Shown: piece by piece, positions 1,363 through 63,066 of the stretch
Position numbering within the stretch: position 1 is the first letter of the stretch
How the letters are laid out: the number at the start of each line of letters is the position of its first letter
NCBI RefSeq assembly: GCF_022770205.1
Contig: NZ_JALEIK010000038.1
Coordinates: 227,816 to 291,815, forward strand
Direction of reading: 5' to 3'
From: Helicobacter sp.
GTDB taxonomy: Bacteria > Campylobacterota > Campylobacteria > Campylobacterales > Helicobacteraceae
DNA: 64,000 nucleotides
The notes under the pieces: model-generated
Databases searched by the model: none
Told to the model about the DNA's origin: nothing
Seen by the model: only the letters and a program-made list of their open reading frames with translations
Made by a program: the position numbers and the translations under genes

Positions 1363-2378
1363 TTATTGATTTGCTTGTAAAGTGTTTTGAAACTCTACAA
1401 GCTTTTGCATATTTGTGTTAAAAGCATCTTCTAAATCTTTAAACTCATTGATTGCTTTGCGCAACTTTTCATCTTCTTTGATAGAGTGTAGATATTCAAT
1501 GATTTTTTCTTTATTTGAGATGTATAATTGACAAGAAACTAATAAAAATATCATATATTTTTTATCAAAATATTCCCACATACTTCCCCATAAAAGTGCG
1601 TTGCTTAGGGCTTGTCCTGTGGCGCCTAGTGAGGACCACTCACCTCCGCCGTGATGGCGATATATGCAGTCAATTTTCGTGCTATGGTAGGCTTTTCCAT
1701 CGTGTAAGGAGGCGAAGTTTCTAAAGCTATCTCCGCATACGATTTTTCTAATGCCTTGTGTTTTAGGGCTTTTAATTTTACTTGGGAGTCCTTTTTTAAA
1801 AAGTGTGTTTCTAAAAATCGCGCTAGCTACGCTTCCCATAGTCGCGCCCTTTCCTTGACAAAGGCTTTGAAAATCACAAGTATGATCGACTAGATAGTCC
1901 ACATAAATGGTTTCTTTATCAGGGTGTTTAACTATGTTTTACCTTGATAGCTTGTGTAGTCTGTATGGGATTGTAGAAAATCTAGGGCATCTTGTATTTT
2001 TGTTTTACTAGTCCAATAATCATCAGGGTCTAAGGCGCAAAAATAGTCTGTTTGTGTGTGGGAGTAGAGTTTTAGGTAATTATTGATTACGCCTTCATTT
2101 TGTGGTGATTCTAGGACTTTAATTAGATTTGGATGCTTGGGCTTGATATTCCTTTGCGATTTTTAGGCTGTTATTAGTGGAAGCATTATCAGAGATTAAA
2201 ATTTGATATTTATAAGTGGTCTCCTGCATTAAGATGGAATCTAGCGCGTCTTTTAGATAATTTTCTTTGTTGTATAAAGCCATCATAATTGTCAAAAGTG
2301 GTTTGTCTGTTTTTTCTGTATGCGGGGGGGGGGGGGATTTTTAGTTGCTATTATTTTTTGATTTTTCTGCCTTGACAT
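1363..2378 (-). pseudogene. Family 2 glycosyltransferase A, poly-C phase-variable and frameshifted
   Basis: This is a GT-A fold (family 2) glycosyltransferase of a surface glycan pathway. From ATG 2378 the leader MSRQKNQKIIATKN runs into a C13 tract (2324-2336). With 13 C the frame ends shortly after; with 14 C it continues into the domain start LLTIMMALYNKENYL and the SDNAST motif. Two more single-base shifts are needed: minus one at the G3 run 2139-2141 and plus one at the T4 run 1937-1940. Net +1 gives exactly 339 codons. The rebuilt protein has the metal-binding DPDDYW and a C-terminal HHGGGEW segment. The end (1363-1902) is open for 179 codons. As read, the gene is off. It shares its leader with glycosyltransferase B upstream. 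Confidence 0.8.
2324..2336 (-). repeat. C13 homopolymer tract (coding strand) in glycosyltransferase A
   Basis: There are thirteen G on the + strand, hence C13 in the coding strand, about 14 codons after the start. Long poly-G/C runs are known slipped-strand phase switches in Helicobacter and Campylobacter surface genes. Thirteen C puts the gene out of frame; 3n+2 (for example 14) opens it through the polyproline leader. Confidence 0.9.
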
Positions 2379-2428: not shown

Positions 2429-3823
2429 TTAGCGTGGAAAATTGAATTTGGATTCCAACATTTTGATTCTCTCTTGTGCTTGAGTTAGGGCGTTTTGGAG
2501 TGCTTGGTTTTCTTGGTTTAGACGCACGATGTGGGAGTTTTCTAAATACAATAAATCTTTTACAAATTGGATTTGTCTTGCGCGCTCTTTTGATTTAATA
2601 ACGCTTGGGTTTTGTAGATCATCAAAAATGCCTTTATTGGGAATTTTTTTTAAAATCTCAAAAACTACATTGAAGCAAATGGTAAAATATTCCTCTATGC
2701 CAATGTCTGTTTGAAAAGATTGTAGAAAATAGATGAAGTTTAGGTAATTGTAAAAAAACGGCATTAGTGTTTCTTTGAAAAGATCAAGATTGGGAAAATT
2801 TGGCTTTTTCTCCATAAAGTCTTTAAGAATCCAGCAGATTGTCATCCAAGACATAGTATTATGAACTTGTCTTGCTAAATAGGGATTCTTTAGAGATTTC
2901 ACTACCCCCTGAAAGACTTTAGGGATAATCGGAGTAGGATCTTTATCGTTATGCACAGACCAAGAGCCTTCGCGGTATCTGTAGCGATAGAGCTTTTTGG
3001 GCAAAACATAGATTGTCTTTGCTTGTAAGAATAGTAGCATTCCTAGGATTCCATCTTCATAGACAATATTGGGCACAAACTTTAAATAAATAGATTTTAA
3101 AAATTTTAAAGAAATTAGCATATTCACACTACAATGGAATAAATTGTGTTGAGCTGTTTTAATGCTTTCTAGCCATTGCTTTGGGGTGATGATTTGTGCG
3201 GTGTTGTAACCTAGTATTTCGTGCAGTGTTGTGTGATTAACTTCTATGTTTCCTTCTACAATTTTATCTACATCATACCAAATAATATCAGAGTTTTGGT
3301 GTTTTAAAAGACATTCTTCTAAAAGGCTTGGATGTCATACATCATCAGAATCCAAAAAGGTGATGTAGTCTGCATCGGGTTTAGCTAGGGATTTTTCTTC
3401 TGTGTTTTTATGGATGAAGTCAATGTTATAGATATTTTCTGTGGTAATTTCAAAAATGGAAAGCTCATTTTCTTTTTTGGTGTGTTTTGCTTGGATTTCG
3501 CCTTTAAAATAACTGATTACTAGTTCTCTGCCTGTGGTTGCCCCTTCATTGATTCTTTTGTGTAAAAGAGTGATGCGAGAATCGCTACAAACATAGTCTT
3601 TTGCCATTTCTTTGCAGGCTAAATCTGTGCTTCCATTATCTACTAATAGGATTTCAAAATTTTGATTGGTTTGATTAAGGACACTATCTACGCATTCTTT
3701 AAGGTATTTTGTGGAGATGTTATAGATTAGAATTGCAACTGCGACTTTTTGTGGACTTTTTCTGTGCGGGGGGGGGGGGGGATTTTTAGTTGCTTTAGTT
3801 GCTATTACTTTTTGCTTTGCCAT
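2429..3823 (-). pseudogene. Family 2 glycosyltransferase B, poly-C leader, in-frame TGA at codon 163
   Basis: A family 2 glycosyltransferase that starts at ATG 3823 (leader MAKQKVIATKATKN, then five Pro from a C14 tract). It enters the domain with VAVAILIYN, has LVDNGSTD, and reaches the metal-binding FLDSDDV. It is then interrupted by TGA (3335-3337) where Trp (TGG) would fit (DDVWHP). The same frame stays open to 2429 and includes the late motif VYEDG (residues ~235-240) and a C-terminal coiled coil (ENQALQNALTQAQERIKML). Total frame is 465 codons. The poly-C tract is in the ON length, so the nonsense codon alone should inactivate it. Restart at 3127 would lack the donor-binding half. Confidence 0.82.
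3768..3781 (-). repeat. C14 homopolymer tract (coding strand) in glycosyltransferase B
   Basis: Fourteen G on the + strand encode Pro codons near residue 15 of glycosyltransferase B. Fourteen C is the in-frame (ON) length. Its place in the leader matches the C13 tract of the neighbouring gene. Confidence 0.9.
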
Positions 3824-59200: not shown

Positions 59201-59716
59201 ATGGAATCTTATGAGGATTTGCGCTTAGAAAAAAAGGATAAGATTCTAAAACTTAGCTTTTTTGAGCGTTTGCTTAAAAGAGATAATCGTATCTCAGAGC
59301 AGAATTTAGATTTTTTAGAAGAGCGTTATCAACAAAGCGATTCCACATTGCAAAATCCACTCCAAGATATTAACAAAAATAGCAGACATTTGCAGACATC
59401 TTTACAGGAGGAAAATGCGCAAATGTTAATCCATACAGGCTTAAATGTGGAGGAGCGTGAGGCGATATTAAAGGGTATGGATTTAAACACAAAAGAGATT
59501 CCTTTTAAAATGGTGGTGGTTACATTTTGTTTGATGGCGTTTGTTTTGGTGCTTTTTATCCCTAAGATTTATATGCGTAATAATATCTATTATGCAAGCC
59601 GTAACATTATTCAGCTACAAGCGCAAATTGATTCTTTGAGAGAGGAAAATAAACACATTAAAAAACAACTAGAGGATATTAAGTTTAAAAACCTAACACA
59701 AGAGTTAGATTTCTAA
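59201..59716 (+). CDS. FtsL-like single-pass protein
   Basis: 171 aa: a long charged cytoplasmic N-terminus (~1-103), one membrane helix (VVVTFCLMAFVLVLFIPKIY, ~105-124), and a short coiled coil (IIQLQAQIDSLREENKHIKKQLEDIKF). The coil and place after rsmH resemble FtsL of division clusters; the N-terminus is longer than usual. Starts 3 bases after rsmH. Confidence 0.6.
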   Translation: MESYEDLRLEKKDKILKLSFFERLLKRDNRISEQNLDFLEERYQQSDSTLQNPLQDINKNSRHLQTSLQEENAQMLIHTGLNVEEREAILKGMDLNTKEIPFKMVVVTFCLMAFVLVLFIPKIYMRNNIYYASRNIIQLQAQIDSLREENKHIKKQLEDIKFKNLTQELDF

Positions 59717-59725
59717 GGAGAGAGA

Positions 59726-61127
59726 ATGAAAGTTTTAATTTATGGATTTGGTTGGAGTGGAAAAGCGATTTTAGATTTATGTGAGAATATGGGCTGTGTT
59801 TGTAGGGTTATAGATGATGCGTTGGATTCTATAATGCTTGATGATGAAAGATTTATGACTTATGCAATGTTGGAGGATAAAATCGTTGCTGGAGATTCCT
59901 TTGATGTGTATTGGATAGCAGTGAGTGGGAAGCCTGCAATCACACAAAAGATTAAAAATAAGCTACTATTGTGCGGGGGGGGGGGGGAATATTGTAGAAA
60001 ACTTAATTTGTGAAAAAGCATTAAACGGATATTATGAAAAATATTTAATGATTATTAAAGAAAAATATAGGAATCCAAAAACCTTTATTGGAAGTTTGTT
60101 AGCAAAAGAGTTTGTTTGGGAGCAGATTTTAAAAGAATATAGGCAAAGGAAGCAAGAAAGACTATTGCAGGATATGCAAACACATAAAAGTGTGGAAGAG
60201 CAATGTAAGGATTTAACCATTTTTGCAAAACTTTTTAAATATGGCACGCGCAATAGTGCTCTAATGTATTATCCCGGAATTGCTTTGCCGATTGATTTAA
60301 CTAAACAGGACAAAAATTTTTTCTTTAAGCATCCAGTGGAGTTTAAAGCTTTGCAACAAAGAGAGTCGCAAAAGCAAATCGTTGCGCTTTTTGGTCCAAG
60401 CACAATGCAAGAAAGTTATGTGGATAATGAGAGTGATACATTAGTTTTTAAATTGCAAGCATTACAAAAAGCGCATAAAAATCCTAGAATCCTTTTAAAT
60501 TTTGGAATTAGTGGCTATACACTTTATGAACAATTTATGCTTTATACCTCTTTGATTTATCCCTTAAAGCCTGAAATTGTTATAGCAGTTTTCTTTGGGG
60601 TGGATATTTTTTCAGGCAGGATAAGTTGTGAAAAATTATTGGAGCAGCACGCAATCTTTTATGGAGGAGGTTTGTTGGAAAAAGATTATAGGGATTTAAC
60701 GCAAAGTATTCTTCCAATGAAATATCAACTTTTACAAGCAGGGGAAAAGCCTACGCTAAATACTGATACAGCAATTTTAGAAGCCCTACAAACGCGCTTA
60801 GAGCAATTTAATGCAATGGTGAAAAGTTATGGAGGGAAGTTTTATCCTATTATTACGCCTTTGCTTGCTTGCAAAAAAGAATGGAGTAGAGAAGAGAAAG
60901 AAAATTATTCTGCAACATTAAAAGACTTTAAAAACATTGCATACGAGGATACAAAGCGGGAAATCTCTTTGATTGAAGCTTTTAAAGCAATGCCAAGAGA
61001 TTTTACTCTTTATGATGGAAATGCAGCGATAAAGGAATCCAAAGAAACACTTTTTATGGATTTTATCCACCTAACACCAAAGGGAAACGCAGAATTTGCT
61101 AAATACATTAGCAATCTTGTGCGTTAA
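59726..61127 (+). pseudogene. Phase-variable Rossmann/SGNH-like protein, poly-G off state
   Basis: ATG 59726 reads a Rossmann-like N-terminus (VLIYGFGWSGKAIL; RVIDDALDS), reaching a G13 tract (59975-59987) and then stopping at residue 95. With 12 G the frame would continue into the downstream reading frame to 61127, giving 466 residues. That part has an SGNH-like domain: FGPSTMQES (block I position, ~residue 216), NFGISGY, FFGVDIF, and the C-terminal Asp/His pair in DFIHLTPKGN (~448). The N-terminus resembles PglD_N-type sugar-modifying domains weakly. Function unknown; surface-glycan modification is a guess. Restart at ATG 60048 could give the C-terminal part alone. Confidence 0.75.
59975..59987 (+). 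repeat. G13 homopolymer tract, phase switch
   Basis: Thirteen G within codons for four Gly. Twelve (3n) joins the two frames of the surrounding gene, thirteen breaks it. Similar tracts at the left edge (2324-2336, 3768-3781) are in glycosyltransferases. Confidence 0.9.
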
Positions 61128-61176: not shown

Positions 61177-63066
61177 ATGGAATATGATGTAATTGTCATT
61201 GGTGGCGGACACGCAGGGATTGAAGCTTCTATTGTGGCGGCAAAAATGGATTGTAAAACCTTGCTTTTAACAATGCTTGTAGAGCAAATTGGAGCAGCAA
61301 GTTGTAATCCCGCTGTTGGTGGGCTTGGCAAAGGGCATTTGGTCAAAGAAATTGACGCACTTGGTGGAGTTATGGGTTACATTACAGATAAAAGCGGAAT
61401 CCAATTTAGAACCCTTAATGCTTCAAAAGGTCCTGCTGTGCGTGGAACGCGTGCGCAAATTGATATGGACAGATACAAAATTCTTGCTAGGGATATTTGC
61501 TACCGCACAAAAAACCTAGAAATATCCCAGCAAATTGTGGAATCGCTAGTGTTAGAAAAAGATTCCATAATTGGCGTAAAAACAGCCATTGGCAAGGTTT
61601 ATCGCGCAAAAAAAGTGGTGCTAACAACAGGCACATTTTTGCGCGGGAAAATCCACATTGGAGAAAACACTTCTAGCAATGGACGCGCAGGGGAGCCACC
61701 AGCAATGGAGCTAGGAGAGAATTTAAGGGAATTAGGGCTTGATGTTGGGAGATTAAAAACAGGCACTTGCGCGCGTATTAAGGCAAGCAGCATTAATTTT
61801 GAGATTTTAGAGAAGCACTATGGTGATACGCCTGCTCCATTTTTTAGCAAAAAAACCCAAAAAGAACTTGGAGAAAATCCCTTTAATCCCGTGCAACTCC
61901 CTTGTTATGTAACTTACACAAATGCAAAAACACACGCAATTATTAGAGAAAATTTTCATCGCGCGCCAATGTTTACGGGGCAAATTGAAGGGATAGGTCC
62001 TAGATATTGTCCTAGCATTGAAGATAAGGTGAATCGCTTTAGTGATAAAGAGCGGCATCAGCTGTTTTTAGAGCCACAAACGCTAGAAGCAAATGAGTAT
62101 TACATTAATGGTTTAACAACTTCCTTGCCCTTTGATGTGCAAGAAGCGATGATTCATAGCATTGAGGGTTTAGAAAATGCAGAGATTGTGCGTTATGGTT
62201 ATGCCATTGAGTATGATTATATTAATCCCACAGCATTAAAACACACGCTAGAAACTAAGAAAATACGGAATCTTTATTGTGCAGGGCAAATTAATGGCAC
62301 AACAGGCTATGAAGAAGCCGGCGCACAGGGGATAATTGCCGGAATTAATGCGGCTTTGAGTGCGCAAGGTAATGAGGAGGTTGTATTAAAGCGCAACGAA
62401 GCCTATCTTGGTGTAATGATAGATGATTTGGTTACAAAAGGCACAAAAGAGCCTTATAGAATGTTTAGCTCGCGTGCGGAATACCGCTTGCTTTTGCGTG
62501 AAGGAAATGCGATTTTTAGGCTTGGTGAGCTTGCGTATTCTTTAGGATTAATGGAGGAAGAGGAGTATAAAGAGTTGCAAAAAGATAAGATAGCTATTAA
62601 AGAAGGTTTAAAATGGCTAAAGCACACATCTGTAACGCCAAGTGCTTTGGTGTTGAAATTTTTAAATGCTATTGGTGAGGATAGAATTAGCGATAAAACA
62701 CATTGGGGAACGATTGTTGGTCGCCGTAGTTTTGATGTGTCTAAACTTTTAAAGATTCAAGAAGTGGAGAATTGCCCCTTTGCAAACTATTCAGAGCGTG
62801 CATTAGAGGAGATTTTAGTCGAAGCAAAGTATTGTAACTATATCCAAAAACAACAAGATATGATTGATAATATGGATGAGATGTTAAGCATTGAGATTCC
62901 GCAAGATTTTGTATTTGATGGACTTCCGGGGTTAAGTTTAGAAGTGGTTGAAAAACTTAAAAAATTTAATCCTAAAAGTTTATTTGAAGCAAGTGAGATT
63001 AGCGGTGTAACGCCTGCTAGTTTGGAAGTTTTGCAATTGTATATCCATTTGCACCATAAAAAATAA
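61177..63066 (+). CDS. mnmG: tRNA uridine-5-carboxymethylaminomethyl modification enzyme
   Basis: An FAD-dependent subunit of the MnmEG complex modifying U34 of tRNAs; 629 aa. FAD site [12 protein letters not shown] (~8), [17 protein letters not shown] (~45), TTGTFLRG (~150), [13 protein letters not shown] (~370). ATG 61177 follows AAGGGTTAAG; the frame opens 7 codons earlier at 61156, upstream of good spacing. Confidence 0.96.

What the first reader, a model, noticed from the sequence alone, without database searches (positions are those of the whole stretch)
59726..61127. Poly-G-switched Rossmann-SGNH fusion inside the cell-wall/division cluster
A G13 tract splits one gene into an N-terminal frame ending at residue 95 and a downstream SGNH-like frame. 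Removing one G gives a single 466-residue protein. The combination of a PglD_N/Rossmann-like N-terminus with an SGNH-like domain is unusual and I do not recognise it as a named family. It sits between an FtsL-like gene and mnmG, so a switched envelope modifier may be placed in a cell-wall locus. Poly-G phase switching is well known in this group; the substrate is not.
Basis: partly seen in the sequence, partly recalled or inferred. Interest (0 to 1): 0.62.

Follow-up and report, generated by a model that had tools for sequence, protein, structure and literature searches.

The report
Poly-G switched Rossmann–SGNH glycan-modifier gene
A Helicobacter gene is interrupted by a run of 13 G's that probably slips to turn it on and off; it belongs to an unnamed, multi-copy bacterial family, most likely enzymes that add or remove acyl groups on surface sugars, and its place beside a cell-division gene looks incidental.

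Summary
In detail: G13 at 59975-59987 separates a 95-residue Rossmann-like frame from an SGNH-like frame, offset by one base, with no other lesion. It is one gene: naturally intact one-ORF relatives exist, including the mnmG-linked orthologue of a sister species (476 aa, G11). The H. canadensis orthologue is split (G9). Those two copies have dS 0.02 against 0.34 in adjacent mnmG, yet differ in tract length: strong comparative evidence for a hypermutable switch and for recent exchange between species. The family (12 of 19 genus genomes, 1 to at least 5 loci each, plus a few other Campylobacterales) bears poly-G tracts at four or five different positions. Models show an SGNH-like C-domain (Z 19 to CgnD) and a Rossmann-like N-domain; PglD_N membership is unproven and no Pfam/NCBIfam model passes its cut-off. 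The division-cluster placement is uninformative: relatives have ftsL-mnmG without the gene. Paralogues lie in glycan clusters (often overlapping asnB) or beside flagellin, Maf and an AMP-ligase. Best explanation: a phase-variable, probably cytoplasmic acyl-esterase or acyltransferase on glycan precursors. Switching of glycan genes is known; I found no description of this two-domain family.

The parts
59726..60013 (+). First frame: 95-aa ORF, Rossmann-like N-terminal half-domain (GxGxxG at its start); ends soon after the tract
59975..59987 (+). G13 homopolymer, the presumed slippage site
59988..61127 (+). Second frame: helical linker and SGNH-like domain, open for 379 codons to the stop
60393..60404 (+). 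Block I motif Gly-Pro-Ser-Thr; the Ser (60399-60401) is the presumed nucleophile
   Evidence: Ser in 22, Cys in 4 of 26 relatives
60498..60515 (+). Block II motif NFGISG (conserved Gly)
   Evidence: Gly in 22 of 26
60591..60605 (+). Block III region FFGVD; the canonical Asn is absent (Val here, Thr/Val in most relatives)
61059..61070 (+). Block V motif Asp-Phe-Ile-His, presumed catalytic Asp and His
59715..59720 (+). AAGGAG, likely ribosome binding site, overlapping the stop of the upstream FtsL-like gene: expression probably from the upstream operon
   Evidence: sequence
59201..59716 (+). FtsL/DivIC-like gene upstream (neighbour, not part of the system)
61177..63066 (+). mnmG downstream (neighbour; the one flank shared with the H. 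canadensis-type orthologues)

Best explanation
The locus is a translationally phase-variable gene. Slippage in the poly-G tract moves the downstream frame in or out of register: out of register (as assembled) gives a 95-residue Rossmann fragment with no active site; in register gives one protein of about 470 residues. That protein has an N-terminal Rossmann-like nucleotide- or substrate-binding domain, a helical linker and a C-terminal SGNH-like domain with a Ser-(Asp)-His site. It probably works in the cytoplasm, moving or removing an acyl group (O-acetyl or another ester/amide acyl) on a sugar precursor of a surface or flagellar glycan, so that switching makes cells display two glycan forms. 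The split, the natural intact relatives, the fold and the tract differences are shown; switching within a population, enzyme activity, cellular location and substrate are inferred.
For: Single lesion in an otherwise open gene. Natural intact one-ORF relatives. Orthologous tract lengths 13 (window), 9, 11, 11 and 10. The H. canadensis and G005 copies: dS 0.02 in the gene against 0.34 in adjacent mnmG, but G9 against G11. Tracts at four or five different positions within the family. One family paralogue in H. canadensis, HCAN_0660/0661, has reads with 11-16 G in PMC2823697 (match to locus L031). SGNH-like fold: 8a2n Z 19.3 over 257 residues, carbohydrate esterase 7toh Z 16.2 over 196. Ser/His conserved. 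Rossmann-like N-domain, pLDDT 91. Paralogue neighbours: overlapping asnB, DegT aminotransferase, sugar formyltransferase, methyltransferases, DUF354, and flagellin, Maf, AMP-ligase.
Against: No reads for this gene. The canonical block III Asn is missing. The window copy has no obvious glycan-modification cluster around it, so the function is carried over from paralogues at roughly 30-40% identity. Four relatives have Cys in place of Ser. No cellular location was predicted; cytoplasmic is judged from the N-terminal sequence alone.
Confidence: 0.6

Rival explanations
1. The window copy is a decaying pseudogene; the frame break is a dead-end mutation and the tract no longer matters.
For: The copy is frame-broken as assembled; the related copy in G001 carries further lesions; a relative (G012) shows only a scar of the gene.
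Against: No second lesion in the window copy; the presumed catalytic Ser, Asp and His are kept; near-identical copies in two species differ in tract length; tracts recur at other sites in the family.
Confidence: 0.12
2. The tract length is mis-assembled and the gene is simply intact (or fixed) in this strain.
For: Long homopolymers are error-prone; PMC2823697 itself notes the sequencing caveat.
Against: A G-run of about 13 in coding DNA is far beyond chance and is expected to be hypermutable whichever length is right; orthologues differ in length.
Confidence: 0.1
3. Two proteins are made: a short Rossmann protein and, by internal start, a free SGNH-like protein; the tract decides fusion or separation (the reading PMC2823697 gave for HCAN_0660/0661).
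For: The second frame is open and contains possible internal starts; PMC2823697 proposed this for a paralogue.
Against: No relative was found as two separate clean genes; in most paralogues the tract cuts within the SGNH-like domain, separating Ser from His, so the pieces cannot be two working enzymes; a 95-aa N-piece lacks part of the Rossmann sheet and the long helix.
Confidence: 0.08
4. The protein acts on peptidoglycan or division, as its neighbours suggest.
For: Position after rsmH and the ftsL-like gene; some SGNH proteins (PatB, OatA) act on peptidoglycan (PMC12148441, PMC5697884, abstracts).
Against: Neighbourhood not conserved; relatives have ftsL-mnmG with no gene between; paralogues are in glycan clusters; no export signal evident by eye.
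Confidence: 0.06

Closest known systems
Simple-sequence-repeat contingency genes of Helicobacter and Campylobacter, in particular HCAN_0660/0661 of H. canadensis (PMC2823697)
   Same: Poly-G in coding sequence, frame-shifted halves; HCAN_0660/0661 (L031) is a paralogue of the same family with reads of 11-16 G
   Different: The paper left it hypothetical and read it as a possible protein fusion; the window orthologue has its tract at the Rossmann/linker junction. The H. canadensis mnmG-linked orthologue (G9 at G003:C1:111230) does not seem to be in its tables: HCAN_0115, also G9, fits the AMP-ligase gene at 103828 instead
SGNH/GDSL hydrolase fold (CgnD 8a2n; carbohydrate esterase PbeAcXE 7toh; TesA)
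   Same: Fold; Ser nucleophile motif, Gly of block II, His near the C-terminus
   Different: Block III Asn absent; Pfam cut-off not reached; extra Rossmann-like domain and helical linker
PglD/NeuD-type sugar acyltransferase N-domain (4eaa, 4m99)
   Same: Rossmann-like N-domain with GxGxxG; Z 7.2-7.5 over about 80 residues
   Different: No left-handed beta-helix acetyltransferase domain; match no better than to many other Rossmann proteins
NeuA of group B Streptococcus, bifunctional CMP-sialate synthetase/O-acetylesterase (PMC8319020)
   Same: Precedent for an esterase domain fused to a nucleotide-sugar enzyme, setting glycan O-acetylation (analogy only)
   Different: No cytidylyltransferase domain here; homology not shown

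Membership tests
SGNH/GDSL hydrolase superfamily | alpha/beta/alpha SGNH fold | tested here: met
   model of the intact orthologue; best hits are SGNH proteins, Z 14-19
SGNH/GDSL hydrolase superfamily | Ser in block I (G-x-S) | tested here: met
   GPS in the window; Ser 22 of 26, Cys 4 of 26
SGNH/GDSL hydrolase superfamily | Gly in block II | tested here: met
   22 of 26
SGNH/GDSL hydrolase superfamily | Asn in block III (GxND) | tested here: not met
   Val in the window; Thr 15, Val 6, Asn 1 of 26. Hence called SGNH-like, not a canonical SGNH enzyme
SGNH/GDSL hydrolase superfamily | Block V DxxH | tested here: met
   DFIH in the window; the His is seen in nearly all C-terminal domains detected (not in the damaged G001:C74 copy), the Asp varies
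SGNH/GDSL hydrolase superfamily | Pfam Lipase_GDSL curated cut-off | tested here: not met
   19.2 and 23.4 bits against 23.6
PglD_N domain | Pfam cut-off and Rossmann-like fold | tested here: inconclusive
   14.4 v 23.4 bits; Rossmann-like fold, 4eaa Z 7.5, tied with other Rossmann proteins
Translational phase-variable (repeat contingency) gene | Long homopolymer inside the coding frame, separating two frames of one gene | tested here: met
Translational phase-variable (repeat contingency) gene | Tract length differs between close relatives | tested here: met
   G9 v G11 in copies with dS 0.02
Translational phase-variable (repeat contingency) gene | Mixture of lengths in one population; reversible expression | not testable with these tools
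   no reads; only the paralogue HCAN_0660 has published read ranges
NeuA-type bifunctional synthetase/esterase | Cytidylyltransferase domain | tested here: not met
   no such Pfam domain in the window halves or in 12 relatives
Periplasmic SGNH acyltransferases (PatB, OatA, DltD type) | Export signal or membrane anchor, and a membrane acyl carrier partner nearby | not tested
   no signal predictor run; N-terminus begins directly with the Rossmann strand; no MBOAT or AT3 gene recognised among the neighbours read

The most novel reading that the evidence does not exclude
A previously undescribed family of phase-variable two-domain enzymes, Rossmann-like plus SGNH-like with a Ser or Cys nucleophile, that transfers diverse acyl groups (possibly from an AMP-ligase/acyl-carrier supply) to activated surface or flagellin sugars in the cytoplasm, spread as single accessory cassettes among Helicobacter species, with switch tracts gained repeatedly at different sites.
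Probability: 0.25. Interest if true: 0.62.

Novelty: new variant of a known kind. Interest (0 to 1): 0.42.

Why it matters
Poly-G switching of glycan genes is well known, but this family is unnamed, occurs in several copies per genome, seems to pass between species, and carries switch tracts at four or five different sites in the gene: a natural replicate suggesting selection for switching of one enzyme type. It also re-explains HCAN_0660/0661, published as a possible switch between one and two proteins, as the ordinary on/off break of an SGNH-like enzyme.

Tried and rejected
The G9 gene HCAN_0115 of PMC2823697 was first taken for the orthologue and rejected: an AMP-binding ligase gene with a G9 tract lies at G003:C1:103828 and fits its description. 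A first scan of genome contigs with the C-part alone found nothing; the alignment scan found eight loci. Sequence search of the PDB gave no hit. Fold search of the N-domain gave generic Rossmann matches, none decisive. NCBIfam gave no family at cut-off for the window halves; among relatives the best, acetylxylan esterase AxeA1 in 4 of 12 at E 4e-6, may reflect the shared SGNH fold. Promoter and terminator scans were at chance. Literature searches found no paper on this architecture. The dN/dS of the gene between the two closest copies (0.47 on 18 differences) is too weak to show constraint. An acyl-carrier-like gene downstream of one paralogue is below Pfam's cut-off.

Full report
Observation. 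The window (part of a 1.61 Mb, 38-contig genome) holds G13 at 59975-59987. The frame from ATG 59726 ends at 60013 after 95 residues; the frame after the tract is open to 61127. Shuffles expect 0.31 matches to eight G per window. The frames are offset by one base. I did not write or fold the joined window protein; naturally intact relatives served instead.

One gene, not two. Both halves match relatives in order. Intact single ORFs of 463-478 aa occur in several genomes, among them the mnmG-linked orthologue of genome G005 (476 aa, G11). G003, whose 1,623,845-base size I recall as that of H. canadensis NCTC 13241 and whose tracts fit the published table, has G9 there and is split; G013 has G11 and is split; G001 has G10, at another locus, with further lesions.

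A hypermutable and travelling gene. Between G003 and G005 the gene has dS 0.02 and adjacent mnmG has dS 0.34; identity is 97-100% across the gene and about 92% over the surrounding region. The simplest reading is recent exchange between the two species (inference). In that short time the tract changed length (9 against 11), which is what slippage predicts.

The family. Twelve of 19 genomes of the genus and a few others in the order carry it, 1 to at least 5 loci each. Tracts lie near residue 87 (the window group), 205, 248 or 365; in the copy on contig C12 of the window genome the tract lies about 25 residues before the last of these, so there may be five sites, although the tree run pooled it with the 365 group. 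On a tree of the SGNH-like core the labels need five changes, the least possible being four. Some members have no tract. One paralogue, at G003:C1:684819, matches HCAN_0660/0661 by its 382-aa length, G13 and 14 residues after the tract. PMC2823697 reports reads with 11-16 G there, with a caveat on the 454 method. HCAN_0115 is not the orthologue.

Structure. AlphaFold of the intact G005 orthologue (7 sequences, pLDDT 74) gives an SGNH-like domain from about residue 180: CgnD 8a2n Z 19.3, rmsd 3.6 over 257; esterase 7toh Z 16.2, rmsd 2.8 over 196. CgnD is a hydrolase that releases the crocagin core from its leader (PMC10070186), so the fold match does not fix the reaction. The N-domain of a paralogue, folded alone (16 sequences, pLDDT 91), is Rossmann-like with a long helix; best match 2g6t Z 8.8, then RCK, Rex, 3nkl and the N-domains of perosamine N-acetyltransferase and PglB (Z 7.2-7.5), among many similar scores. 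Ser (22 of 26; Cys in 4), Gly and His are kept; the block III Asn is not.

Context. In four relatives rsmH or the FtsL-like gene runs on to mnmG without the gene; in one of these, G012, the intergenic DNA resembles the 3' end of the window gene, a probable deletion scar. In G003 and G005 a different gene lies upstream; in G004 the same upstream gene meets mnmG with nothing between. So the gene is accessory and its neighbours say little. The AAGGAG before its ATG overlaps the upstream stop, so it is probably expressed from that operon (sequence, inference). Paralogues sit in glycan clusters, commonly overlapping asnB and near DegT, formyltransferase, methyltransferase, DUF354 and oxidoreductase genes, or, in this same genome (C12), between an AMP-ligase/aspartate decarboxylase pair and a methyltransferase, flagellin and Maf gene set. 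In genome G007 members lie singly among housekeeping genes.

Mechanism. Shown: split frame, intact relatives, fold, motif conservation, tract differences. Inferred: switching in a population, cytoplasmic place, acyl chemistry, glycan substrate. The bifunctional NeuA O-acetylesterase of group B Streptococcus is a functional precedent (PMC8319020), not a relative shown here.

Verdict. A real, probably phase-variable gene of an unnamed two-domain family; a new variant of a known kind, of moderate interest. The cell-wall placement should be dropped as evidence for function.

Noticed in passing
window 2324-2336 and 3768-3781: Two more long G runs (G13, G14) inside or beside minus-strand ORFs 2429-3823, which look like a split family-2 glycosyltransferase (recognised by eye).
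   Followed up: no
L067 (G000:C13:1-20000): About 13 G runs of 9 or more in 20 kb across radical-SAM-like, methyltransferase and aminotransferase-like genes: a dense, probably phase-variable glycan cluster.
   Followed up: no
L024 and L033 (G007:C6, G000:C12): In these paralogues (one beside an acyl-carrier-like gene, one beside flagellin and Maf) the presumed nucleophile is Cys instead of Ser (FGAC). One of the tandem copies in G190/G229 also has Cys.
   Followed up: partly
L060 8836-10484 v L061: The gene is about 99% identical between H. canadensis and G005 while the surrounding region is about 92%: recent exchange between species.
   Followed up: yes
L121 about 1383-1480 (G012): Apparent scar of the 3' end of the gene between the FtsL-like gene and mnmG, suggesting deletion.
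   Followed up: partly
L061 12295-14406 and L060 4312-6318: Large proteins (703 and 668 aa) without a Pfam match at cut-off; the G005 one has a G11 tract near its start and a GGSNS motif.
   Followed up: no
L066 4300-6160 (G000:C12): An aspartate decarboxylase (panD-like) and an AMP-ligase directly downstream of a family paralogue, near flagellin: possibly a beta-alanine-derived glycan modification.
   Followed up: no
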